The position numbers and the translations under genes were made by a program. Below are positions 2,632-16,760 of a DNA stretch of 64,000 nt, piece by piece (positions within the stretch are counted from its first letter, which is position 1; each line of letters begins with the position of its first letter). Origin of the DNA: Methyloterricola oryzae (GTDB lineage Bacteria; Pseudomonadota; Gammaproteobacteria; Methylococcales; Methylococcaceae); NCBI RefSeq assembly GCF_000934725.1, contig NZ_JYNS01000002.1:186001-250000 (forward strand), read 5' to 3'. The notes beneath the pieces were generated by a model. That model worked only from the letters and a program-made list of their open reading frames with translations, made no database searches and was not told the origin of the DNA.

Positions 2632-2656
2632 TGTAACATTTTTGTTACATGTAACA
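2632..2656. promoter_or_regulatory. Operator-like palindrome, TGTAACA-N4-TGTTACA plus a third half-site
   Basis: TGTAACA (2632-2638), four T, TGTTACA (2643-2649), then TGTAACA (2650-2656). The last two abut to form a perfect 14-bp palindrome. It lies 365 bp upstream of surface protein A, in an AT-rich gap. The same TGTNACR-N4-TGTNACR architecture recurs upstream of the other copper-locus units, so a shared dimeric regulator is inferred. The regulator is not in the window. Confidence 0.55.
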
Positions 2657-2818
2657 TTGGTGAGATAAACCCCAACCGCATAACCATTTATCAAGCGCTT
2701 AGAGCGGATTGAAGGGTAGCCATGACCAGAGTGTCGCCGGAGGGCAACGAACCTCCCTGTCAGGAAGTTTTACAGGTGTTTCATGAGGATGGGACGCCAA
2801 GGTGGCCGATGCAAGTAG

Positions 2819-2849
2819 GGTGCAGGGCCTTGAGACAAGGCACTGCACC
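2819..2849 (-). terminator. Stem-loop downstream of the 59-aa ORF
   Basis: A 14-bp stem (2819-2832 pairing with 2836-2849, one mismatch) with a 3-nt loop. It sits about 50 nt downstream of the stop codon of the small minus-strand ORF. No T-run follows, so it may be a processing or attenuation structure rather than an intrinsic terminator. Confidence 0.35.
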
Positions 2850-2899
2850 CCGCGAGGCGTTTCTAGCAGACTACATTAAATGCGGAGGGCTTGGCGCAT

Positions 2900-3079
2900 T
2901 CAGATCGCGATGGTCAGGCTGCAGCCAAACACTTGAACCGGTTTATCCAGGAGCCTGGATAGGGAGTTGGCGCAGTTTCGCGCCATGCGCGGATCGTCGA
3001 AATACCCGTTGATAGCGCCTGCTGACTCAAAGGTATGGCCACGGTGGGAGATAATCAGGTGTTTGATGATTGCGTACAT
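2900..3079 (-). CDS. Small hypothetical protein, 59 aa
   Basis: The start at 3079 is supported by a strong GGAGG 8 nt upstream on the minus strand; a longer in-frame version from 3148 lacks this support. The product begins MYAIIKHLIISHRGHTFESA and contains GYFDDPRMARNCANSLSRLL and a C-terminal VFGCSLTIAI. It has two Cys and three His but no recognisable domain. It lies between SCO protein A and surface protein A, 111 bp downstream of the perfect palindrome at 3190-3207 and upstream of a stem-loop at 2819-2849. The ribosome-binding site, the flanking operator and the hairpin together suggest a genuinely expressed small gene, but no homology is known to me. Confidence 0.45.
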   Translation of the reverse strand: MYAIIKHLIISHRGHTFESAGAINGYFDDPRMARNCANSLSRLLDKPVQVFGCSLTIAI

Positions 3080-3189
3080 GACGGCTGCCTCCGGTGATGA
3101 TTCTGTTTCAGTTATCCGTATATCCATACATTCCCTGAAAAGGTTCATCGCAGTCGATACAATTTAAATTATTTAACGCAGTTTATAAC

Positions 3190-3207
3190 TGTCACAGATC
3201 TGTGACA
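3190..3207. promoter_or_regulatory. Perfect operator-like palindrome TGTCACA-N4-TGTGACA
   Basis: A perfect 18-bp inverted repeat with centre GATC. It lies 111 bp upstream of the 59-aa ORF and about 920 bp upstream of surface protein A. It is the same motif as at 7840-7857. Confidence 0.55.
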
Positions 3208-3537
3208 TACATAATCAAAAAAACACTTAGTTGGCACCTTAGAAATAGGTTTTCATTGGGTGTGCCTCAGGTAACCGATGAAACGTGCCGGTTCCGCTTC
3301 AACCCCCCATCCCAAGCTTCCGCTTGCATGGGAGAAGGAGCGAAGACAGCGTCGAAACAGGCGCTGTCCCTGCTCCTTCCGGGGGCGAGCTGGGCTCGGC
3401 AAGCGGCGTGGATTTGATCCGGAAAAATAGCCGGCTGCGCCATGGGGCGGTCGCGCCGGCTCGGAAGGGGTAGGAGCGGGGCGAGCGCCACCGGGCGTCG
3501 CCCTGTTTACGAACGCGCTGCGGGATAGGGATAAGGC
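3208..3537. other. Gap without a convincing gene
   Basis: This holds the 3' flank of SCO protein A. Short open frames here have no ribosome-binding site or recognisable product. I see no clear terminator or repeat. Confidence 0.4.
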
Positions 3538-4530
3538 TTATCTGGCCGCCGTTGGGGGTTCGGCTGCGGCGGTGACCGGAACCTGGGCGCGCCGGTCGGA
3601 GGCTTCCAGGTATTGCAGGATGGATTCCACCTCCCTATCGTTCAATTTGAGATTTGACATGGGGATTTCCCGGTATTGCCGGTACAGGGCCAGGGCCGTG
3701 GGGTCCTTGCGCGCAATCATGCGATCCGGTTCCTTGATCCATTGCTTGAGCCAGGTCCGGTCGCGGCGCTGGGTCACGCCCGCCAGTGGGGGGCCAATGC
3801 TTTCCGTGCTGTCCTCACTATGGCACACCTCGCACTTATCCCGGAACAGGGACTGACCCGGAGTGTCGTCGTGATGGTCGTGCATGGCGATAGCCATGGG
3901 GGGCACGGCATGGCCGCGGCCACCCTGCAGGCGCACGCCGAGAATGCGGGCGAGAGCGGCGGGTTCCTCAAAGGGCGAGCGTTTGATCCACTGGCCGCCG
4001 GTCTCGCTGCCCATGAGCACGTTGATGTTGTGCTCGCTGAGATCCTTTTCCTGCTTACCGTCGTCGCGGTACATGCCCAGCTTCTGCCGGATCAGGGTGA
4101 CATCGGCCTTGCTGCCGCTGAGAAAGGTCCAGCCCGGACCCGTGTGAAATTTGTCGGCGTAAGCCTTCAGCACTTCCGGCTTGTCGCGCTCCGCGTCGAT
4201 GCTGATGGTGTAGAAATGCACGTCCTTACCCATGCGATCTCCCAGTGCCTGCTGGACCTTGCGCAGGGCTGCGGTTTCCAGCGGACAGGCGTAGACGCAA
4301 TGGGTGTAGATGAAATTGATGGCAAACACCTTGCCTTTGATCAGGTCGTCGTAAAAACGGACCTTCTGCCCGTCCTGGGTGATGAGTTCCACATTGGGAA
4401 AGTAGCTGGCGCCCCAGGGAGAGCCGGAAGGGGCGGCCCACGCAGGGCCGCCCTCCAGGTTCACCGCGAGACCGGCCAGCAGCAGCAAGGCTTTGGCGCC
4501 GCGGCTGATGGATGCGATCGTCGCTTGCAT
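3538..4530 (-). CDS. SCO1/SenC-cytochrome c fusion protein A
   Basis: This 330-aa secreted protein has a signal peptide (residues 1-32, ending PAWA). Next is a thioredoxin-fold SCO1/SenC domain with the copper-binding CxxxC at Cys78/Cys82 (HCVYAC) and the third ligand at His167 (SEHNIN). A His/Asp-rich linker (HDHHDD) leads to a C-terminal class I cytochrome c domain with a CEVCH haem site (233-237) and a probable Met ligand in EIPMSN. SCO proteins deliver copper to, or reduce cysteines in, copper sites; a fused cytochrome c would add electron transfer. It starts 19 bp downstream of oxidase A with a GGGAG ribosome-binding site, so the two are co-transcribed. The inferred job is copper loading of, or electron exchange with, that oxidase in the periplasm. 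It is paralogous to 8416-9417. Confidence 0.88.
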   Translation of the reverse strand: MQATIASISRGAKALLLLAGLAVNLEGGPAWAAPSGSPWGASYFPNVELITQDGQKVRFYDDLIKGKVFAINFIYTHCVYACPLETAALRKVQQALGDRMGKDVHFYTISIDAERDKPEVLKAYADKFHTGPGWTFLSGSKADVTLIRQKLGMYRDDGKQEKDLSEHNINVLMGSETGGQWIKRSPFEEPAALARILGVRLQGGRGHAVPPMAIAMHDHHDDTPGQSLFRDKCEVCHSEDSTESIGPPLAGVTQRRDRTWLKQWIKEPDRMIARKDPTALALYRQYREIPMSNLKLNDREVESILQYLEASDRRAQVPVTAAAEPPTAAR

Positions 4531-4549
4531 GGTGAGATCTCCCTGCCGC

Positions 4550-7420
<2,871 letters not shown>

Positions 7421-7583
7421 AACAGAATCTCCGAACTTTAGGTGTACCGTCAGGCACAAAGCATCCGTGAGGCGGGAAAACCAGCAGGTTTCCACCTTGC
7501 GGCGCAATGCCGTCACTTCAAAATCAATGGGGTATGGTTCAGCCTATGAAATCAGGACTAGCCTTACCCAGAAATGGGTTATA

Positions 7584-7601
7584 TGTAACATTTATGTGGC
7601 A
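7584..7601. promoter_or_regulatory. Operator-like site TGTAACA-N4-TGTGGCA
   Basis: Centred about 170 bp upstream of the oxidase A start. It deviates by one base in the second half-site from the TGTNACR-N4-TGTNACR pattern. The oxidase B promoter has a counterpart at almost the same distance (12488-12505). Confidence 0.45.
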
Positions 7602-7839
7602 TTAAATTCAGGTTTCACGCCTGCAACTTCGAGCAATTAACGGGACATTTCGTGCTTTTGTAAGCTTCCTTGCGACTGGCCTCATGGGTTCTTCGCGCCC
7701 TTGGGCGACGCAGAATTACCCTTCCGTTTGACCCATTAATTCCGCGAGACCTTGAAAAGGTTCATGGGCTGCGCAATAAATCAGAAAATTTGTTAGTTGG
7801 GTTTGAGAGTTAATTTCGTATGCCCGTATATGGGTTAAT

Positions 7840-7857
7840 TGTCACAGAATTGTGACA
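7840..7857. promoter_or_regulatory. Perfect operator-like palindrome TGTCACA-N4-TGTGACA
   Basis: The inverted repeat extends to 10-bp arms (7837-7860). It lies 420 bp upstream of oxidase A, inside a stretch that aligns with 12640-12760 upstream of oxidase B. Confidence 0.55.
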
Positions 7858-7937
7858 ATTAACGAGGAGCTGCAGATGCCAAAGGATGCTTTTAATAACA
7901 ATAAGTTAAAGTGCTAATGGTCCAATTCGAGAATTGT

Positions 7938-7955
7938 TGTAACAAACCTGTGACA
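7938..7955. promoter_or_regulatory. Operator-like site TGTAACA-N4-TGTGACA
   Basis: The third copy of the 18-bp motif in the oxidase A upstream region, 98 bp from the previous one. Confidence 0.45.
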
Positions 7956-8415
7956 AATTCCGCCAAGGGGCGTCGAGTGGATAATTTCAGGATGAAATTG
8001 CGGCCTTATCGATGTCCCATGGGACTTGTCTGGATTTTAGAGAATGCTCTGATTCAGTCTGAATTCGAAGGAGTGCTAAAACTATTTTGCGGTTTCTGTC
8101 AAAAATATTGACAGTTGAAGTAAGGAAGCTCATGCATAGTGGTCCTGCGGGATCGAAGCCGATCAAGCCGGCGTCAATGCGCTTGAGCCAATGCCAAGAG
8201 TCGGGATGGTCTTAGTACTGTGGGAGGGTTAAATGAGAAGCCCCTTTCTCGCAAATAGCCTACCTTGATGGAGACGGCTGGGTTTCGAGGGTGTCGAGGA
8301 CGGCAAGCTTGGATGGAGCCAACGGCTCTGTCGGCGAAAGTAGGGCGAGGGATCTTTGGCGGGGGAGAACGGTGAACGGGGCCGCCTGCTGCGGCCCGCG
8401 TCAATGTGATGTCTT
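7956..8415. other. Gap without a convincing gene
   Basis: The downstream flank of SCO protein B. Short open frames have no ribosome-binding site or family resemblance, and I see no terminator with a T-run. Confidence 0.4.
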
Positions 8416-9417
8416 CTATTGCATGGACAGGGCTTTTGCGTCGTTCGCGGCAAGTGGCTTGGTTTGGCGATCGTTGGCTTCGAGGTATTGCACCAGATCC
8501 TCGGCCTGTTGATCCGTGAGACGGAAGTTCGGCATGGGGATTTGCTTGTACGCCTTGTAGATCGCCAGGGCGGTCTTGTCCTTTTTGGCGATCAGCTTGT
8601 CCGGTTCCTTGAGCCAGCGCTTAAGCCAGTTGCGGTCGCGCTTTTTGGTGATTCCTGCCAGGCCCGGGCCGATATCGTCCGCTTCCGCCGTACTGACGCT
8701 GTGGCAGTTGGAGCAGCGAGGATAGAACAGCTTTTCCCCCGGCAGTTCCTTGGTGGGGTCCAGAATTGGCGCGTTGATGTGGGCATTGGCGATCCCCGAT
8801 GCGCTGCCGGGCGATCCCAGTCGCTGGCCTATCACACGAACCAGCGCCGCAGTATCCTCGAAGGGGGAACGCTTGATCCATTGGCTGGCCGCCTCATTGC
8901 CCAAAAGGATATTGATGCTGTGCTGGTTGAGGGCAGTCTCTTGCTTGCCGTCGTTGCGGTACATGCCCAGTTTTTTGCGTATCAGGTCTACGTCGGCCTT
9001 GCCTCCGCTGAGGAAGAGCCAGCCCGGACCCACATGGAATTTGTCAGCGTAGGCTTTGAGCTCCTCGGGTTTGTCCCGTTCGCCGTCAATGCTGATGGTG
9101 TAGAAAAAGACTTCACGCCCGACCCGGTCCCCCAGGGCCTTCTGCACCTTGCGCAAGGCCGCGGTTTCCGCGGGGCAACTATCCTTGCAGCGGGTAAAGA
9201 TGAAGTTGAGGGCAAACACCTTGCCTTTTAACAGGTCATCATAGAAACGGAGCTTGCGCCCGTCCTGATCGATCAGTTCCACATTGGGAAAGAAATTGGC
9301 GCCCCATGACGAGCCGGAGTCGGCGGCCCAGGCCGGGCCGCCCTCCAGGATCGCCGCGAGACCCGCCAGCAGTGCCAGAATCAGGGTCCGGGTGCTGGCT
9401 GAGATCTGCGGTTTCAT
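8416..9417 (-). CDS. SCO1/SenC-cytochrome c fusion protein B
   Basis: This 333-aa paralogue of 3538-4530 has a signal peptide ending PAWA and a SCO domain with CxxxC at Cys77/Cys81 (RCKDSC) and His166 (NQHSIN). The C-terminal cytochrome c domain has CSNCH at 235-239 and a Met in QIPMPN. The linker between domains lacks the HDHH cluster of copy A, so the extra metal-binding stretch is not conserved. It starts 26 bp downstream of oxidase B and is presumably its partner. The retained pairing of each SCO copy with its own oxidase argues for a specific maturation or redox relationship. Confidence 0.88.
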   Translation of the reverse strand: MKPQISASTRTLILALLAGLAAILEGGPAWAADSGSSWGANFFPNVELIDQDGRKLRFYDDLLKGKVFALNFIFTRCKDSCPAETAALRKVQKALGDRVGREVFFYTISIDGERDKPEELKAYADKFHVGPGWLFLSGGKADVDLIRKKLGMYRNDGKQETALNQHSINILLGNEAASQWIKRSPFEDTAALVRVIGQRLGSPGSASGIANAHINAPILDPTKELPGEKLFYPRCSNCHSVSTAEADDIGPGLAGITKKRDRNWLKRWLKEPDKLIAKKDKTALAIYKAYKQIPMPNFRLTDQQAEDLVQYLEANDRQTKPLAANDAKALSMQ

Positions 9418-9443
9418 GTGTATTACCTCGCTTGGTTCATGGC

Positions 9444-12329
9444 TTATTGAGGAGGCAGCGTCTTGACGTCGCGGGTCAACGCGGCGTTGGATGTGTCCAC
9501 CTTGTTGGCGACTACGTCAGTGGCCTGCGCACCCCACGTGCCCGGATCCGTGCCCCACTTGGCCGGCGGCGTGAAGCCCAAAACGGTGCTGGAGGTAAAG
9601 CCGGTCTTGGCGTCGGTCTTGGTGCTGCCGGTGACGTAGGTGGGCACGGTCTGGGTTGGACCCAGGCGTTCTTTCGCGCCGTCGCTGCTCTCGCCCGCTT
9701 CGGCGTAGTAAGAGCCATCCCAATCCGGATAGGGTGTGCGTACCCATTTGTTGTGATCGCCCTGGCTGTCCCAACGCAGCAGCATGGCGTGGTCTTCATG
9801 CTGGGTGTTGTGGCAGTGCTCCACGAAGGTACCGGTGAAGTCACGCACCTTGATGGCGATGTCCACCTGGCCGGAGGAGTTCTGCTCCGGTCCTACGCGG
9901 TACATGTCCTTGCGGCCGAAGGCTTCCCAAGGCGGCGGAGCCAGTTTGTCGCGCCAGATGATCTGGCCTTCCTCGAAGTGGATATGAGCCGGATGCGACC
10001 AACCGCCCGACGGGTTCTTCAGGTGCCAGATTTCCAGGGAGTTGAGGGTCGGAGCCGCCGAGATCATATTGATCTCCGCGTTCTTGTCCGGGCCGCCGTC
10101 GGTGGCGATGGACCAGGGGTTGTTGTCCACTACGCCCGGAACGGCCGCCTTGCGCCCGAATACGAAGCTGCGGTGGCGAGCCTTGTTCAACTCGTCTGCG
10201 GTGTAAGTGGGCAGAGCCTGCATGACCCAGTTCTTGCCGGTACCGCCGTTGCCCGCCGCCGTGTAGTCGGCAGGGTTCATGCTCTGGTCGAGCTGGTTCG
10301 CCGCCATGGGCCGGATGCGGAACTCCATGAAGGTGCCGATGGCCGGATCGCCACCTTTGTAGGTGGACTTGACCACCCGCGGATCAGCCGGATTGAACAC
10401 ATTGGCCAGGGTCTGGGGAGTGACCAAAGGCCCGGTACCGGTGGTGAATTCCGCCAGGTTGACGAAGTACACCTTCTTCCACGCCGTGCAGACGTTCTGC
10501 ACCTTGGTTTTGCAAAGCTGGCTGTTATTGAAGTCGATGATGATGTCATAGCGCTCGGCGATGGACTGAATGCCCATGCCTTCCATGGTTTTGCCTGCGA
10601 CTTTCGGCGCATTACCGGTACCGAATTCCACGGCGTGCTGGAGCAGGTTGCCGTCGTTGCCGATCTGGTAGAAAGGCACCTGTGCGCCGGTTTCGTCCAC
10701 CACCGCGATCTTGAAGTAGCGGGAGACCGAGCCATTGAGGATACGGAAGCGATACTTGCGGGCGCGAACGTCCAGATACGGCTTGTACATCCAGTTGACC
10801 AGCACCGCGTCACCGAGGAACCCATCGGATTGCAGAGGGTTGAACCAGAGTTGGCCCTGGGCGTCGAAAGCCTTGTCCGCCACCACCAGGTTGACGTCGT
10901 AGTCGCGGTTGCCCCACTCCTTCGCGGATCCGCTGGGGAGTCGCAAATTGACGCCATCGTTAACGGCCTCGTTGCCCCGGTCGATGGCGCTGTAGTAGTT
11001 CATCATCGCCGCGTTGCCCTTGTAGACGTTCTGGGCGGTGAAGTCGAGCATGTGGTCGTGGAACCAGTGGGTGCTCATCATCTCGCGGTAGTCGCCGGGA
11101 ATATTGGCGGACCAAGCCTTACTGTTCGGATCCTGCACGCATTTCCAGCCGTTTACATTGTCTTCGCCATCGAAGCAAGGTGTGGCGGCGCGCTTGTCGG
11201 ATGCCTTCGTGTTGATGGTGTCGTGACCCGCCAGGACCATGGGCCACCGGTAATCGTAATACTGGCCCGGATAGAAGAATGCGCCGGCGAAGCCGTCGCT
11301 CTCGGCCGGGTTATGGCCGTTGTGCTCGTGGGTGGTGATGGTGTGGGTGCCGAAACCACGATTGGCCGAAATGTCGATAGGCAAGCCGTTGTGGTGACGG
11401 AAAAGGATGGTGTCCGCGTAACGTGCCATCAGCAACTTGGGCGGCAGTGTGCCGTCGAAGGTCCATACCGCGTTGCGATCCTGAACCTGCATTTTGGGGT
11501 GCGGCAGAACTGGCATGCCTTTGGTGGTGCCTTCGAATTGTGACAGGTAGCCTCCATCCACGGAAGCAGCGGGATCATTGGGGGTTGCCGGTCCGCCGGG
11601 AGCGTAGGGGGAGGTCAAGGTGTTGTGGTAAAGCCCGCCCGGCGCAAACTCGCTGAACTTGCCGTTGGTCTTCGTGCCGTAGCCATGGGACTGCAGTTCG
11701 TCACGGGCACCGCCGCCGGTGCGGGCGCCGGCCATGATGGTCTGGAAGAAGATCTTCGGCTGGAATTCCATTTCCTTTGTGAGCTGATTCGGTTCGTCCC
11801 AGCGCTGATGGCCGAAATCATCACCGTCAGGCCGGCCAGAGGCAGGCATCGAATCCATCCCCGCAGTATACGGATTGCATTGTTTGATCTGCTCTTTCCA
11901 GGGGTTTTGATTGCGTATACCGTTGCTATCGACGTCCTCTTCGGAGTTCGCTTTCGGAAGCGGGCCCAAATGATCTGCCTTGATCACCTTGTCCAGTTCC
12001 GATTCGACATCGGCGGGATTGCCTTGGCAGTCGAGAACACCCGTCTTGCTGACCGGCGGAGCCAGCAGTTTCTTGCTGTCGTCGAGATCGTTGTAGGGTT
12101 GCGTGCCGAACTCCTCGAACAGGATGACGCGCTGGTTGAAGGCACGCTCCTTGAACTCTGTGGCGGTCATGCTGGTCTGTGCGGCGCCCGTGGGAATGGG
12201 CACGGTCCCGGCCTGCGCGGCGGTGCACGCTAGGGACAGGGCTGCTGCAACAGCCGCCGCCAGGCGTGATTCTTTTGCGATGAGGATCGACCCTCTATCG
12301 CGGTGCATCGCTGAATTATCTGTTTGCAT
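9444..12329 (-). CDS. Large secreted multicopper oxidase B (CotA/phenoxazinone synthase-like)
   Basis: This 961-aa paralogue of oxidase A has a signal peptide (cleavage near AAQA, residue 40). All copper motifs are present: HEHNGH, HWFHDH, HPAHIH and HCHNTQHEDHAM. Regions around the copper sites are nearly identical to copy A (for instance STHWFHDHMLDFTAQNVYKG). The first 250 residues and the C-terminal tail have diverged, and copy B has an extra Cys-containing stretch (SQLCKTKVQNVC) absent from A. The start at 12329 has GGAGAG 6 nt upstream; a longer in-frame version from 12368 has no such site. It is co-transcribed with SCO protein B. Confidence 0.88.
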   Translation of the reverse strand: MQTDNSAMHRDRGSILIAKESRLAAAVAAALSLACTAAQAGTVPIPTGAAQTSMTATEFKERAFNQRVILFEEFGTQPYNDLDDSKKLLAPPVSKTGVLDCQGNPADVESELDKVIKADHLGPLPKANSEEDVDSNGIRNQNPWKEQIKQCNPYTAGMDSMPASGRPDGDDFGHQRWDEPNQLTKEMEFQPKIFFQTIMAGARTGGGARDELQSHGYGTKTNGKFSEFAPGGLYHNTLTSPYAPGGPATPNDPAASVDGGYLSQFEGTTKGMPVLPHPKMQVQDRNAVWTFDGTLPPKLLMARYADTILFRHHNGLPIDISANRGFGTHTITTHEHNGHNPAESDGFAGAFFYPGQYYDYRWPMVLAGHDTINTKASDKRAATPCFDGEDNVNGWKCVQDPNSKAWSANIPGDYREMMSTHWFHDHMLDFTAQNVYKGNAAMMNYYSAIDRGNEAVNDGVNLRLPSGSAKEWGNRDYDVNLVVADKAFDAQGQLWFNPLQSDGFLGDAVLVNWMYKPYLDVRARKYRFRILNGSVSRYFKIAVVDETGAQVPFYQIGNDGNLLQHAVEFGTGNAPKVAGKTMEGMGIQSIAERYDIIIDFNNSQLCKTKVQNVCTAWKKVYFVNLAEFTTGTGPLVTPQTLANVFNPADPRVVKSTYKGGDPAIGTFMEFRIRPMAANQLDQSMNPADYTAAGNGGTGKNWVMQALPTYTADELNKARHRSFVFGRKAAVPGVVDNNPWSIATDGGPDKNAEINMISAAPTLNSLEIWHLKNPSGGWSHPAHIHFEEGQIIWRDKLAPPPWEAFGRKDMYRVGPEQNSSGQVDIAIKVRDFTGTFVEHCHNTQHEDHAMLLRWDSQGDHNKWVRTPYPDWDGSYYAEAGESSDGAKERLGPTQTVPTYVTGSTKTDAKTGFTSSTVLGFTPPAKWGTDPGTWGAQATDVVANKVDTSNAALTRDVKTLPPQ

Positions 12330-12487
12330 TACGATCTCTCCGACTGAAGTTGTAAATTTTTGGCGCAAACCATCCCTAAAACGGTCAGTAAATAACTGGC
12401 CGTCCTTCGAATTCTGCTTTATGAATGACTAGATACTCTTTCCTGTTATTGGTTTTAAGCTTTAATGGTCTGCGCTAATTACTAGGT

Positions 12488-12505
12488 TGTAACAATTTAG
12501 AGACA
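12488..12505. promoter_or_regulatory. Degenerate operator-like site, TGTAACA-N4-AGAGACA
   Basis: Lies 159 bp upstream of oxidase B, matching the position of the 7584-7601 site relative to oxidase A (164 bp). The first half-site is intact; the second has two mismatches. Confidence 0.35.
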
Positions 12506-12744
12506 GTTCTGATGCCCTAAAAATACGTTTGGCGTTCGGATCCCAGGCTGACGTACGCGGGATCGGAGTGCCACTCAATTCTCAATGCGGACTTTCAGGT
12601 TCATCCAAAACCACTCACATACACTTCCTGGTCATCCATTAATTCTGGAAGTATTAAAAAAGGTTCACATGCCTTTAAAAAAATATCAGAAAATCTTTTA
12701 GTTGCTCTCAATAGTTAATTTCATTTGCTCTAATTTGGGCGTCA

Positions 12745-12762
12745 TGTATCAAAAATTGGACA
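12745..12762. promoter_or_regulatory. Degenerate operator-like site, TGTATCA-N4-TTGGACA
   Basis: Lies 416 bp upstream of oxidase B, in a segment alignable with the oxidase A upstream region, where the perfect palindrome lies 420 bp upstream. It appears to be a decayed duplicate. Confidence 0.3.
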
Positions 12763-13602
12763 TTTGAAAGACCGATTGACGCGGTGAAAATTTAAAGATC
12801 AATGACTTAGGATTATTTTTTGGCGGAATAGGGATTTTTTGTCGCAGAATTGATACGCATCTGGAAGATGCGTACTTAGGTTTATAAAAATGCGAGAATA
12901 TACTTCATGCGCCAAGTACTATCGTTGCGACACTGAATTTTCTATGTGAATTATAAAACCCAATATAAAGCTCAGAAAATAGTCAGTGAGCGACTGGTGC
13001 TAATTGTTTCCCGTGTGACTCAAAAAGGTTCATTTAATCTTGATATTTCACGACGGAATGATCTGGTCTTTGTTGGCGGGATGAAAGTTGACGAAGGCAC
13101 GCTGCTGTCGAAGTGCTTGGCTCAGTGAGGCCTATGCGGGATTTCTTGATGGTTCGGGTGGTTTTATGTCAGTGAAGCCGTGTACGTCCCATCACGGCGA
13201 TTCAGCAAGGTTTATTTGGGAACGTCCGTGCAATGCCATTCCCCACTGACACGCGGCCGAAGAGGGATCGCAGGAGGCAAATAGGCGACAGGATGCCTTC
13301 TGACCAGCCTGATGGACGATCAGAGAGTGTCACGGGATGCCTGCGGAGCGATCGGCGGTTCGTCTCGCCCAGCGTACAGTTCGCTAAGCGCGCCTGTGTG
13401 GCGGGGAAGGGAAAAGGTTATGTCTTGGTAAGCGAAGAACTGTGTCGGCTTCTCTCCCAAACGCCGATTGTGGGTAGGGCGCGGGTGCTTACAGGTTGCG
13501 CGAACTGCGACGTTGCTTCTTCGCGGCAGCGTTCTGCCCTCATTCCATTCATCCCCCTGCAAGTGGGAAGGAGCCAAGACATTTTCAACGCGAAAAGCGG
13601 AC
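12763..13602. other. AT-rich gap between oxidase B and surface protein B
   Basis: No convincing gene is visible. It contains a fourth copy of the AAAAGGTTCAT element (13023-13033), which also occurs in other gaps of this locus. Open frames between 12946 and 13130 lack a ribosome-binding site. Confidence 0.4.
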
Positions 13603-13637
13603 AAACAAAAAAGCCCGGCGCGCGGGCGCCGGGCTTT
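13603..13637 (-). terminator. Intrinsic terminator of surface protein B
   Basis: A perfect 12-bp GC-rich stem (13610-13621 with 13626-13637, 4-nt loop). Read on the minus strand it is followed by TTTTTTG, about 30 nt after the stop codon at 13669. Confidence 0.85.
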
Positions 13638-13668
13638 GGTGGCTTGCGGTCAGAGGTGCCGGATCAGG

Positions 13669-16053
13669 TCACTTGACTGGACCGGATACGACCGTTCCGT
13701 TGTTGCTGGAGGTGCAGCGTATCTGCCACGTACCAGACGCTGACGGAATGCTTCCGCCGGCGCTGGCTTGAATCTGCACGGCGCCTAAGGGGTCCACAGG
13801 CCCAGTGCCGATCAGTTGGGCTGTAGGCAGCGAAGTGTTGTTGTTTTTGATCAAGTAACAACTCACCGACGGCGTCAGTGGTGCGCCGAACCAGGTGTCG
13901 GTCAGCCGGATGTCCCACTTCGGTGAGTTGAAGCGCGCCCGGGTGACGGTCAGTGCTTCGGCCAAAGGCTCAACCACAACGGTTACAGTGACCGGCGTTG
14001 ACCGTGCTCCGGCGATATTGGCCACCGAGTAGGTAAAGGTGTCGGTGCCGGCACCCGGGGCGCTCAAGGTCGTGGTGCAGACTCCAGGCGCAGAAGTCTT
14101 GCAAGGCCGGTAGGTGATCGCGCCGGTTGCGGTGTTTACCGTAGCCACGCCTCGGGTTCCCTGGGACTCAACCTTTATAGTGGCTGGATTGATAGCGACG
14201 CTTCCAGCGCCGGTGCTGTCATTGGTAAGCACGTTCGCGGTAAACGATGCCACGGTCGAATTCAGGATGCCAAAATTGTCCGCGACGCCGACCGGAGGGG
14301 CGGCTTGTGCATCGACGTGCAGGCTTACCTTGGCCACATTGGATATCTTGTTGGTAACCACATCCTGAATCGCATAGAAGAATGACGTGTCGTGGGTCGG
14401 CAGGCCCTCCGCTGCCGTATAGGTCACGGTACCACCCGAGGCGGGCGCTGATACTGTGCCTGAAGGCACGACCTCGCCATTCTTTTCGGTCTCGGGCTGA
14501 CTGACCACGACAACGCGGTAGTTCGTCGGGGCGCCGGAGTCGTTTTGTCCGACGTTGAGGGGCGATTGTCCGGTACCGGTTACGCTAAACAGATCATCCT
14601 GTGCGATGGTGGTAATGGTGGCGTCGGACACGCCGGTCAGGGAAATGACGGTCTTGGAATCGCTTCCGCCGAGGCTGGATCTTACGTTGACGCTCTGCGG
14701 GGGTGACACGCGTTCCAGGAAGTCGTCGAGGTCCTTGACCAGCGCGACGTCCTTGGGATCGACCGCCGGGCAGTTGGAGTTTGGCGCACCGAATACACCA
14801 TACGGCGGTGCCTCCAGGCTCGCCGGAGTGGACGCCAGGGTGCTTTCCGAATGGGCCGTCACGCAAAGGACATGGGAGTTGGGATCATAAATCGCCTTGG
14901 TGATGTCGATGGCATCCACCACGGAGGCGGTATCCTGTGATGCGGGCGTACTGGACAGGTTCGTCACCTTCACCAGCGGGGGGGGATCGCCGGCAAATTC
15001 CAGGTGTGCGAAGTAGGTGCCCGACGGCGTGTCGTTTTCTTTAAGCCTGACTCCCGGGACGGAGGGTGACTGGTCATTAGCGGCGGTGACAACCAGGTTT
15101 TGTCCGGGTGACGAAGTTGCCCAGATGTCCATGGCGTTTGTCGATCCGGTTTTCGCCGCATAGGTGGCCTTCTCAATTCGTGTGGCCGTTGGAATAGGCT
15201 GAGTCCACTTGATGCCGGAAAGTGAACCCAGAGGACTGAAGAATACATTCGATCCTTGCCCGAGATCGCATCCAGTGGGGCCCTCTATTTCGATGAAATT
15301 CTGGAAGTCGTGTTCAGGGTGGCGAGTCTTAGCCGCGCCGGTGTTGGGCACGGCGCTGCCGGTGTAGGTGTGTAGGACGTTCGGATCGCCGATGTACTCG
15401 TGGGCGGGACCGACGGGTTGCGGCACGATGATAGGTAAATCGGTATCCCAACTCAGGAATGGCCCGTGATGACCTTTGTGCGCCGCGCTGAAGTCGCCAT
15501 TGATTGGCGTGACATCGTCGGTGTAGTTCAGCGATCGGGTTCCCGGTTCCAGGTCGAATTCATTGGTCCCAAACGGATGACGGATGATGTAATGCCCACC
15601 GCACCCGTCTGGCACATCCATACGCATTCGAATCCGGGAGAAGACCACTTCTGTCGGATTCGCAGGGTCGCGTATTGCCGGAGGCGCGCCGGTCGCACTC
15701 AGATACGCCATTTCCAGGGCAGCGACATAATTGAAGTTGATGTTGTTGCCTATATCATTGAAATTGAAAGCGCTGTAAAACGCTTCTCCACCCAGGTTTC
15801 CTGCGAAGCCAGCCGGGTCGGTGTCCGCCGGCGTGGTCAGGCACAATGGCCCGTTTGCGCTGGAGTCTGCGTATTTGCATATTCCCAGCACGTTATCATT
15901 GAAGTCCCGATACCATTGCGGAAATATCACAGTGGCATCATTGGGCCCGTGGTCTCTCAGGACGGCATGTGCCATGCTGCTCGCAAGGATTGATCCGGTG
16001 AGTATCAGTTGAACTGATCGGGCGATTTCTCTGCGTCTGCGGTGGTTATTCAT
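13669..16053 (-). CDS. Secreted Ig/cadherin-like surface protein B
   Basis: This 794-aa protein is the complete paralogue of the truncated gene at 1-2267. The start at 16053 (MNNHRRRREIARS) is chosen because it aligns with MNNVKVPAKG of copy A; an upstream in-frame ATG at 16080 has no ribosome-binding site. A signal peptide (cleavage near MAHA) precedes the RDHGPND mature start. The N-terminal 400 residues carry conserved Cys pairs and the WYRDF, HPFG, GCDLGQ and LCVTAHS motifs, without a family I recognise. From about residue 570 come Ig/cadherin-like modules (PVGVADNFGIL, TDTFTYSVANIAG). No PEP-CTERM, LPXTG or autotransporter signal is visible at the C-terminus. It is a monocistronic unit with its own operator-like palindrome upstream and a terminator downstream. 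Extracellular or surface location is inferred. Confidence 0.8.
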   Translation of the reverse strand: MNNHRRRREIARSVQLILTGSILASSMAHAVLRDHGPNDATVIFPQWYRDFNDNVLGICKYADSSANGPLCLTTPADTDPAGFAGNLGGEAFYSAFNFNDIGNNINFNYVAALEMAYLSATGAPPAIRDPANPTEVVFSRIRMRMDVPDGCGGHYIIRHPFGTNEFDLEPGTRSLNYTDDVTPINGDFSAAHKGHHGPFLSWDTDLPIIVPQPVGPAHEYIGDPNVLHTYTGSAVPNTGAAKTRHPEHDFQNFIEIEGPTGCDLGQGSNVFFSPLGSLSGIKWTQPIPTATRIEKATYAAKTGSTNAMDIWATSSPGQNLVVTAANDQSPSVPGVRLKENDTPSGTYFAHLEFAGDPPPLVKVTNLSSTPASQDTASVVDAIDITKAIYDPNSHVLCVTAHSESTLASTPASLEAPPYGVFGAPNSNCPAVDPKDVALVKDLDDFLERVSPPQSVNVRSSLGGSDSKTVISLTGVSDATITTIAQDDLFSVTGTGQSPLNVGQNDSGAPTNYRVVVVSQPETEKNGEVVPSGTVSAPASGGTVTYTAAEGLPTHDTSFFYAIQDVVTNKISNVAKVSLHVDAQAAPPVGVADNFGILNSTVASFTANVLTNDSTGAGSVAINPATIKVESQGTRGVATVNTATGAITYRPCKTSAPGVCTTTLSAPGAGTDTFTYSVANIAGARSTPVTVTVVVEPLAEALTVTRARFNSPKWDIRLTDTWFGAPLTPSVSCYLIKNNNTSLPTAQLIGTGPVDPLGAVQIQASAGGSIPSASGTWQIRCTSSNNGTVVSGPVK

Positions 16054-16364
16054 CGGCGTTGGCCTCGTAAGTCCGTTCATTGATCGAGCGAGTATTGCGC
16101 CGACGCACAGAGCGACTTTGCTTACTCTTGGCTGTCATTGGCGCTTTCCTGATCTCGTTCGAACTGGCATGTCCAGCCGCTCGGGAAAGCGCTCACGTAC
16201 ATTGCGCAAAGCAGTCGCCGTGCCAGAATTAAATCAGAATAATTTCAATAAGTTGGTGTGGTGTTTTTCTGTGACTGGACAAAGTGTAAAGAATGCTTAC
16301 TTCAAAATATGGGTAAATGTCCTTATGAAAGCCCTAAACCACTGACATTATTTAAGAAAGTGTT

Positions 16365-16382
16365 TGTCACGTAATTGTTACG
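16365..16382. promoter_or_regulatory. Operator-like site TGTCACG-N4-TGTTACG
   Basis: The same 18-bp architecture as in the oxidase promoters, 312 bp upstream of surface protein B. The sequence from 16383 to 16760 has no other feature I can support. Confidence 0.45.
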
Positions 16383-16760
16383 ATCATGTCCTGCATGAGA
16401 TGTCTAGCCCTTGAGTCGCGGCGCTTGCCAGACAAACCGTGCATTTGGGAATCGACCACGAACGTCACATACTCATTCAACAAGTGCCGCATGCGCTGGT
16501 TCTAAAGCCCGGCCATACGCTGTTCGCGAGTGCTGTAAAGCAGGCTTAACAATTGAAGGACGATTCTTATATGAAATTGGGCCGTGGCGCATTGGCTATG
16601 CGTTTTCTGCGAATGCGCTGCTACGTGTGGGTGTAAATCTCTGCGCACGCGCCGATACTCCGTATTGAGAGTGCGTGTCGAGCTGTCCCTTGGGGGGCGT
16701 TCGTAAGCGCGCCGAATGTCCTTTCCACCCTATCCATCCAAATTACCTGCCTGACGTTTT

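What the first reader, a model, noticed from the sequence alone, without database searches (positions are those of the whole stretch)
2632..16382. Shared 18-bp operator TGTNACR-N4-TGTNACR across the copper locus
Sites at 2632, 3190, 7584, 7840, 7938 and 16365, and weaker ones at 12488 and 12745, all have the same half-site and 4-bp spacing, and two are perfect palindromes. They sit only in the gaps upstream of these units. At oxidases A and B, sites lie at matching distances (164/159 and 420/416 bp upstream). This implies one dimeric or tetrameric regulator for the whole locus. The remote positions resemble activator sites more than repressor sites.
Basis: partly seen in the sequence, partly recalled or inferred. 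Interest (0 to 1): 0.8.

Follow-up and report, generated by a model that had tools for sequence, protein, structure and literature searches.

The report
Shared switch site for metal-oxidase genes
A methane-eating bacterium carries the same short DNA switch in front of a set of surface copper-enzyme genes, and relatives keep it in the fixed position expected of a remote-acting activator, so it looks like a real control site of a known type with a new sequence and new targets.

Summary
The four gaps of the locus (4,282 bp) contain 5 sites within one mismatch of TGTMACA-N4-TGTKACA; 400 shuffles average 0.005. The whole genome has 16 such places against 1 for the reversed control. The element is an inverted repeat: the fourth base is M on the left, K on the right.

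A matrix built only from sites of related methanotrophs (Methylococcales) finds 9 hits in the four gaps and 1 in the rest of the window. These include the weak sites 12488 and 12745.

In six relatives such sites precede homologous genes. At 8 of 11 sigma-54 promoters examined there, copies lie 73-76 and 127-132 bp upstream of the -24 element. So the motif is most likely an enhancer (UAS) for a sigma-54 activator. In two relatives a VpsR-like activator gene adjoins the operon; the closest homologue here is on another contig.

Copper as the signal has no support, but was not tested. The sites also precede an MnxG-like oxidase and polysaccharide genes. In the window only the 16365 site has a convincing sigma-54 promoter; oxidases A and B lack one. 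Regulator and signal are inferred.

The parts
2632..2649 (.). operator, TGTAACA-TTTT-TGTTACA, 365 bp upstream of the left surface-protein gene
   Evidence: relatives-only matrix 26.2, best in the window
   Evidence: 2 mismatches; matrix 9.8
3190..3207 (.). operator, perfect 18-bp palindrome TGTCACAGATCTGTGACA, 923 bp upstream of the left gene and 331 bp 3' of SCO gene A
   Evidence: matrix 9.1, the weakest of the nine hits
7584..7601 (.). operator, 164 bp upstream of oxidase A
   Evidence: 1 mismatch; matrix 16.8
7840..7857 (.). operator, 420 bp upstream of oxidase A
   Evidence: matrix 14.1
7938..7955 (.). operator, 518 bp upstream of oxidase A
   Evidence: matrix 12.2
12488..12505 (.). weaker operator, 159 bp upstream of oxidase B
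   Evidence: 2 mismatches; second best in the window with the relatives-only matrix, 18.0
12745..12762 (.). degenerate operator, aligned with 7840 of A
   Evidence: matrix 9.6
   Evidence: (2 mismatches); matrix only 3.8
16365..16382 (.). operator upstream of surface-protein gene 13669-16080, 138 bp from a sigma-54 promoter
   Evidence: matrix 13.3
16210..16226 (-). predicted sigma-54 promoter CTGGCACGGCGACTGCT, highest score in the window
4550..7420 (-). multicopper oxidase A (956 aa; start chosen by eye)
   Evidence: Pfam Cu-oxidase_2; 56% identical to B, 60% to the Methylobacter psychrophilus copy
3538..4530 (-). SCO1/SenC - cytochrome c fusion A
9444..12329 (-). multicopper oxidase B (961 aa; start chosen by eye)
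8416..9417 (-). SCO1/SenC - cytochrome c fusion B
13669..16080 (-). secreted cadherin/Ig-like protein (Pfam matches below cut-off), homologue of the first gene of the relatives' operon
   Evidence: 32% identity
3..2267 (-). second copy of that secreted protein (runs off the window), followed outside the window by a 255-aa protein and two HAF-repeat proteins
7736..7764 (.). second shared element TTAATTCY-N12-AAAGGTTCA (also 12639-12667; 2 mismatches at 13004-13032; AAAGGTTC alone at 3139)

Best explanation
The 18-bp element is the enhancer (upstream activating sequence) of a sigma-54-dependent activator. Dimers of a Fis-type helix-turn-helix protein bind TGTMACA-N4-TGTKACA, in relatives usually on two copies about 55 bp apart. 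They assemble an AAA+ ring and contact sigma-54 RNA polymerase 70-140 bp downstream by looping. This switches on the secreted surface-protein, multicopper-oxidase and SCO-cytochrome genes. The likeliest activator is the VpsR-like enhancer-binding protein whose gene adjoins the operon in two relatives; its closest homologue here lies at G000:C8 (L174). Shown: the motif, its enrichment, its symmetry, its conservation, and the fixed geometry with predicted sigma-54 promoters in relatives. Inferred: that a protein binds, which protein, the signal (possibly cyclic-di-GMP through the VpsR domain), and that oxidases A and B, which lack a recognisable sigma-54 promoter here, are switched by the same protein.
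For: Enrichment.

Matrix from 16 sites of relatives, none from this genome: of 10 hits of 9 or more in the window, 9 lie in the four gaps. Sixty column-permuted matrices give 0.07 hits in the gaps on average, maximum 2.

Geometry: of 11 predicted sigma-54 promoters of homologous genes in six relatives, 8 have copies at both 73-76 and 127-132 bp, and 2 have only the near copy (74, 72). Three of the 11 (L049, both of L050) gave no site to the matrix; they show 131+76, 74 and 72. L049 is however from the same genome as L221, which did.

Predicted sigma-54 promoter 138 bp below the 16365 site and 174 bp below C13:63149.

Activator gene next to the operon in 2 of the 3 relatives in which I saw that neighbour (G064, G065; not G067). 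The own homologue L174 has Sigma54_activat, HTH_8, a VpsR domain (43.5 bits, cut-off 23.7) and GAFTGA. It is the best match to the G065 neighbour in the whole genome (355 bits, next 263). It also beats the other own activators that I extracted (347 and 355, next 256 and 265, where one of 19, L180, was taken in a wrong frame). It shares the GISRxxLYRL recognition helix.

Precedent: Pseudomonas mnxG and mcoA have predicted sigma-54 promoters and need the predicted sigma-54 activator MnxR; an rpoN insertion in strain MS-1 abolishes Mn oxidation (PMC11409713, PMC11930936, passages).
Against: In the window genome few sites are followed by a good sigma-54 promoter. At score 19.4 or more, 3 of 18 sites have one within 450 bp, one of them inside the coding region of oxidase A; about 0.7 would be expected by chance (my arithmetic). 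None was found for A, B, 2632 or 3190.

The oxidase paralogue on C12 has a good sigma-54 promoter but no site; nor have the promoters before L174 and at two places of G067 (L031, L238, L262).

L228's surface-protein promoter has sites only at 334, 568 and 669 bp. In G067 the operon's neighbour is not an activator gene, and the two related activators of G067, like that of G066, lack the exact GAFTGA string.

L174 is only 45% identical to the neighbours and not linked to the locus. Its closest match is the G066 protein (54%), and G066 shows no enrichment of the motif (1 against control 1).

In 6 of 10 relatives the strict motif is not above the control. Of 12 oxidase loci with a Methylococcales title, 4 have a site within one mismatch; eight stretches of G001, G015, G036 and G045 have none.

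The sigma-54 score is a hand-made table.
Confidence: 0.6

Rival explanations
1. Same operator and the same VpsR-like protein, but at oxidases A and B it works on sigma-70 promoters, as VpsR of Vibrio does, so that sigma-54 is used only at some units.
For: No sigma-54 promoter of score 17.8 or more at A, B or the left unit apart from the one inside the coding region of A; bare GG-N10-GC cores on the gene strand occur near 2759 and 12378 only. The A and B upstream regions share a conserved block of about 110 bp. VpsR acts with sigma-70 polymerase and c-di-GMP (PMC9303241, passages).
Against: The own protein keeps GAFTGA, which VpsR lacks (PMC3162934, passages). The A/B block has no clear sigma-70 promoter by eye; no promoter scan was run.
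Confidence: 0.25
2. A NarL/GacA-type two-component regulator binds the element. The GacA box TGTAAG-N6-CTTACA (recalled) has the same length and outline, and a response regulator of this look lies in the oxidase cluster on C4 and in relative G036.
For: Similar 18-bp outline (recalled). Response regulator ORFs at L030:17361 and L165:8512, read as LuxR-like by eye. A site lies just upstream of a 262-aa response regulator on C4.
Against: The fixed spacing to sigma-54 promoters in relatives asks for a sigma-54 activator, not a NarL-type protein.
Confidence: 0.1
3. The sites are Pho boxes bound by PhoB (7-bp repeats, 4-bp spacer; form recalled).
For: Direct-repeat variants lie before PstS-like, porin O/P and PhoD genes of this genome, and a degenerate site before a PhoX gene. 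Of the 16 places, two (C23, C32) are of this phosphate kind.
Against: The clear phosphate sites are direct repeats; seven window sites are inverted. Of the 23 places, I read 15 as inverted (the PhoX one among them, ambiguous), 7 as direct and 1 as everted.
Confidence: 0.05
4. A copper-responsive regulator (CueR, CopR/CusR type) controls a copper locus.
For: Multicopper oxidases and SCO proteins in the locus.
Against: The motif does not resemble the CusR or CueR boxes as I recall them. Other genes behind the site are not evidently copper homeostasis genes. No family search for copper regulators was made, so their absence is not shown.
Confidence: 0.05

Closest known systems
MnxR/sigma-54 control of mnxG and mcoA in Pseudomonas putida
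   Same: predicted sigma-54 promoters before multicopper oxidase genes, an oxidase-SCO1/SenC gene pair, an NtrC-type activator (PMC11409713, PMC11930936, passages)
   Different: Of 17 Pseudomonas loci examined, 8 had a sigma-54 promoter, and 3 of these carry CACCCA-N4-TGGGTG, picked by eye among other palindromes. None of the listed palindromes has the form found here. The candidate activator has a VpsR domain.
PEP-CTERM upstream motif and PrsR (Haft 2006, PMC1569441, section 7 and passages)
   Same: sigma-54, NtrC-type activator, surface proteins; PrsR is present here (L173, 678.3 bits, cut-off 502.6)
   Different: 17-nt motif ending TTTACA with a mean spacer of 62.8 nt; here 18 nt, ending TGTKACA, with copies 72-76 and 127-132 bp away. 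The candidate activators score below the PrsR cut-off.
VpsR of Vibrio cholerae
   Same: VpsR domain, AAA+, Fis-type HTH; polysaccharide genes among the targets
   Different: VpsR lacks GAFTGA and works with sigma-70 (PMC3162934, PMC9303241, passages); the candidate keeps GAFTGA

Membership tests
sigma-54 enhancer (UAS) with NtrC-type activator | site at a set distance upstream of a -24/-12 promoter | tested here: met
   in relatives: 8 of 11 promoters with both copies, 2 with one, 1 with neither; in the window convincingly at one unit only
sigma-54 enhancer (UAS) with NtrC-type activator | activator with AAA+ domain, GAFTGA and Fis-type HTH linked to the targets | tested here: inconclusive
   adjacent in G064 and G065, not in G067; own homologue unlinked
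sigma-54 enhancer (UAS) with NtrC-type activator | binding and rpoN dependence | not testable with these tools
   needs experiments
MnxR regulon | same enhancer sequence as the Pseudomonas oxidase promoters | tested here: inconclusive
   a different palindrome in 3 of 8 Pseudomonas promoters; the MnxR enhancer itself is not established in what I read
PEP-CTERM upstream motif (PrsR) | 17-nt motif ending TTTACA, about 63 nt from sigma-54 | tested here: not met
   the recalled form TGTAAA-N6-TTTACA has one 1-mismatch place in the window, at 16534
Pho box (PhoB) | 7-bp direct repeats | tested here: not met
   seven window sites inverted by the fourth base
VpsR family (activator) | VpsR domain over the curated cut-off | tested here: met
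   L174 43.5 bits, cut-off 23.7; neighbour genes in relatives below it (L229 21.9; L228 not listed)
Copper-sensing operator | copper regulator or known copper box | not tested
   no family search for copper regulators; boxes compared from recall only

The most novel reading that the evidence does not exclude
A Mn(II)-oxidation and surface-matrix regulon in methane-oxidising bacteria: one enhancer network, run by a VpsR-like (perhaps cyclic-di-GMP-sensing) sigma-54 activator. It jointly switches MofA/McoA-like oxidases (label recalled), an MnxG-like oxidase, SCO-cytochromes, secreted repeat proteins and polysaccharide genes, tying metal oxidation to the attached state.
Probability: 0.3. Interest if true: 0.72.

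Novelty: new variant of a known kind. Interest (0 to 1): 0.5.

Why it matters
What switches bacterial manganese oxidation on, and what it is for, is called unknown even for Pseudomonas (abstract of PMC11930936). A defined enhancer, its promoter geometry and a named candidate activator in methanotrophs make the question testable for these oxidases. They also suggest looking at life on surfaces as the signal, besides copper or manganese.

Tried and rejected
PhoB/Pho box: my first reading, because direct-repeat variants precede phosphate genes. Dropped once the fourth base showed two classes of site.

PrsR: present, but the published motif differs in length, end and spacing.

MnxR-type enhancer: Pseudomonas loci show another palindrome. 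A search for GAFTGA or Walker-A strings in ORFs of 250 aa or more found no activator gene in the 22 Pseudomonas loci searched.

Structured RNA: 17 kb of the window gave no Rfam match at gathering score.

Sigma-54 promoters for A, B, 2632 and 3190: no convincing one. A high-scoring one at 7325 lies inside the signal peptide of oxidase A and was set aside.

The second element TTAATTCY-N12-AAAGGTTCA: at up to 3 mismatches 20 places against 4 for the control in the own genome. AAAGGTTC is sense to the oxidase genes in relatives and antisense in the window. Its role is unknown.

ORF calls outside the window are mechanical or from my own simple gene finder, which missed real genes of low-GC stretches. 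The MofA/McoA label is recalled: NCBIfam gave only matches far below cut-off for A and B.
Full report
OBSERVATION. The window holds the sites as described. Because TGTNACA equals its own reverse complement, a direct and an inverted reading coincide unless the fourth base is looked at. Seven window sites read TGTM.. / ..TGTK.., an inverted repeat; 12745 is too degenerate to count. In the four gaps (4,282 bp) up to one mismatch gives 5 sites against a shuffled mean of 0.005 (400 shuffles, none reached 5), and up to two gives 8 against 0.03. It has 16 places of the inverted pattern within one mismatch against 1.

TWO LOOK-ALIKES. Of the 23 places I read 15 as inverted, 7 as direct and 1 as everted. 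Several direct ones resemble Pho boxes: they precede a PstS-like gene, a phosphate-selective porin and a PhoD phosphatase, and one is a five-fold array. A site before a PhoX gene counts as inverted by the fourth base but looks of the same phosphate kind.

ORGANISM AND LOCUS. In a capped list, nearest hits of oxidase A are Methylococcaceae: MAG MnB_9 at 77% and others, among them Methylobacter psychrophilus, at about 59%. The locus holds two oxidase/SCO-cytochrome pairs and two copies of a secreted protein, followed outside the window by HAF-repeat proteins. L053 and L054 have homologues in one row: secreted protein, 250-aa, HAF, oxidase, SCO, then a second oxidase.

CONSERVATION. Among 79 loci with a related oxidase, sites within one mismatch occur in L052, L053, L054 and L056 (all Methylococcaceae by title) and in one unrelated locus, L097, with another symmetry. 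Eight other loci with Methylococcales titles have none, nor have eight stretches of G001, G015, G036 and G045. Further stretches of the positive genomes gave more sites. Of 11 predicted sigma-54 promoters of homologous genes in six genomes, 8 have copies at both 73-76 and 127-132 bp above the -24 element, 2 have the near copy only, and 1 has neither. Three of the 11 had supplied no site to the matrix and still show the spacing. Four other sigma-54 promoters scanned in that call, before the C12 oxidase paralogue, before L174 and at two places of G067, have no site. Sixty column-permuted matrices give 0.07 on average, maximum 2. 12488 and 12745 are among the nine; 12840 is not (3.8).

REGULATOR. 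In G064 and G065 the gene next to the operon encodes a sigma-54 activator; the VpsR domain is weak in one and not listed in the other. In G067 the neighbour is another gene. The window genome has 19 strong Sigma54_activat matches. The best match to the G065 neighbour is L174 on C8, 355 bits against 263 for the next. It has a VpsR domain above cut-off and GAFTGA, with the same recognition helix. Its own closest match among those compared is the G066 protein (54%), so orthology with the neighbours is open. It is not PrsR (386.5 bits, cut-off 502.6); PrsR is L173. A palindromic site variant, TGTCGCAGATTTGCGACA, lies 661 bp before its start; with 9 two-mismatch places per 241 kb this is weak evidence.

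OTHER TARGETS. Own-genome sites also precede an MnxG-like oxidase (NF041487, 1584.6 bits, below the cut-off of 3100; two sites, 567 and 368 bp upstream), nucleotidyltransferase and epimerase genes beside glmS, a secreted DUF7450 protein, a protein followed by a weakly PEP-CTERM-like one (below cut-off), an MFS transporter, and a response regulator next to the oxidase pair on C4; one site lies within a glycosyltransferase cluster. I read this as a cell-surface and metal-oxidase set.

WEAK POINTS. In this genome sigma-54 promoters of high score follow the sites at 16365 and C13:63149. At 19.4 or more I found 3 of 18 sites with one, including one discarded inside a gene, where 0.7 is expected. 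Oxidases A and B, the units that drew attention, have no credible one. Either their promoters have drifted, or the activator works there with another sigma factor, as VpsR does. Strict sites are above the control in 4 of 10 relatives only, so the large regulon may be particular to this lineage.

KNOWN PRECEDENT. Pseudomonas mnxG and mcoA have predicted sigma-54 promoters, with MnxR as predicted activator (passages of PMC11409713 and PMC11930936). In 17 Pseudomonas loci I found a sigma-54 promoter in 8, with a different palindrome in 3 of those. The listings shown by my paper searches (at most 15 rows each) contain no title or abstract start that describes this motif or such a regulon in methanotrophs; subscription papers are mostly not covered.

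ODDS. After checking against the calls I lowered the main confidence from 0.62 to 0.60, because the C12 promoter without a site and the missing GAFTGA strings in G066 and G067 had been left out.

Noticed in passing
window 7736-7764, 12639-12667, 13004-13032, 3139: A second shared element, TTAATTCY-N12-AAAGGTTCA, sits in the same gaps (antisense to the genes) and, in sense direction, in the leaders of the relatives' second oxidase gene.
   Followed up: partly
L037:13651, L042:7429, L039:7909, L045:7386, L046:7470: Pho-box-like repeats before phosphate porin, PstS-like, PhoD and PhoX genes and, as a five-repeat array, before a DUF2341/MotA-ExbB protein.
   Followed up: partly
L035:2465-7603: A 1712-aa MnxG-like oxidase with two operator copies and a TGTAAAGAAAACTTTACA palindrome upstream.
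   Followed up: partly
L030:4559-5374 and L165:6842-7803: Response regulators lie beside oxidase clusters in this genome (262 aa, only a receiver domain recognised) and in relative G036 (two short ORFs, by eye).
   Followed up: no
L098, L115, L126, about 90 bp above the sigma-54 promoter: Pseudomonas oxidase loci carry CACCCA-N4-TGGGTG upstream of sigma-54, a candidate MnxR enhancer.
   Followed up: no
L160, L214: Genes that look by eye like type I secretion parts lie near oxidase genes in G001 and behind an operator site in G062.
   Followed up: no
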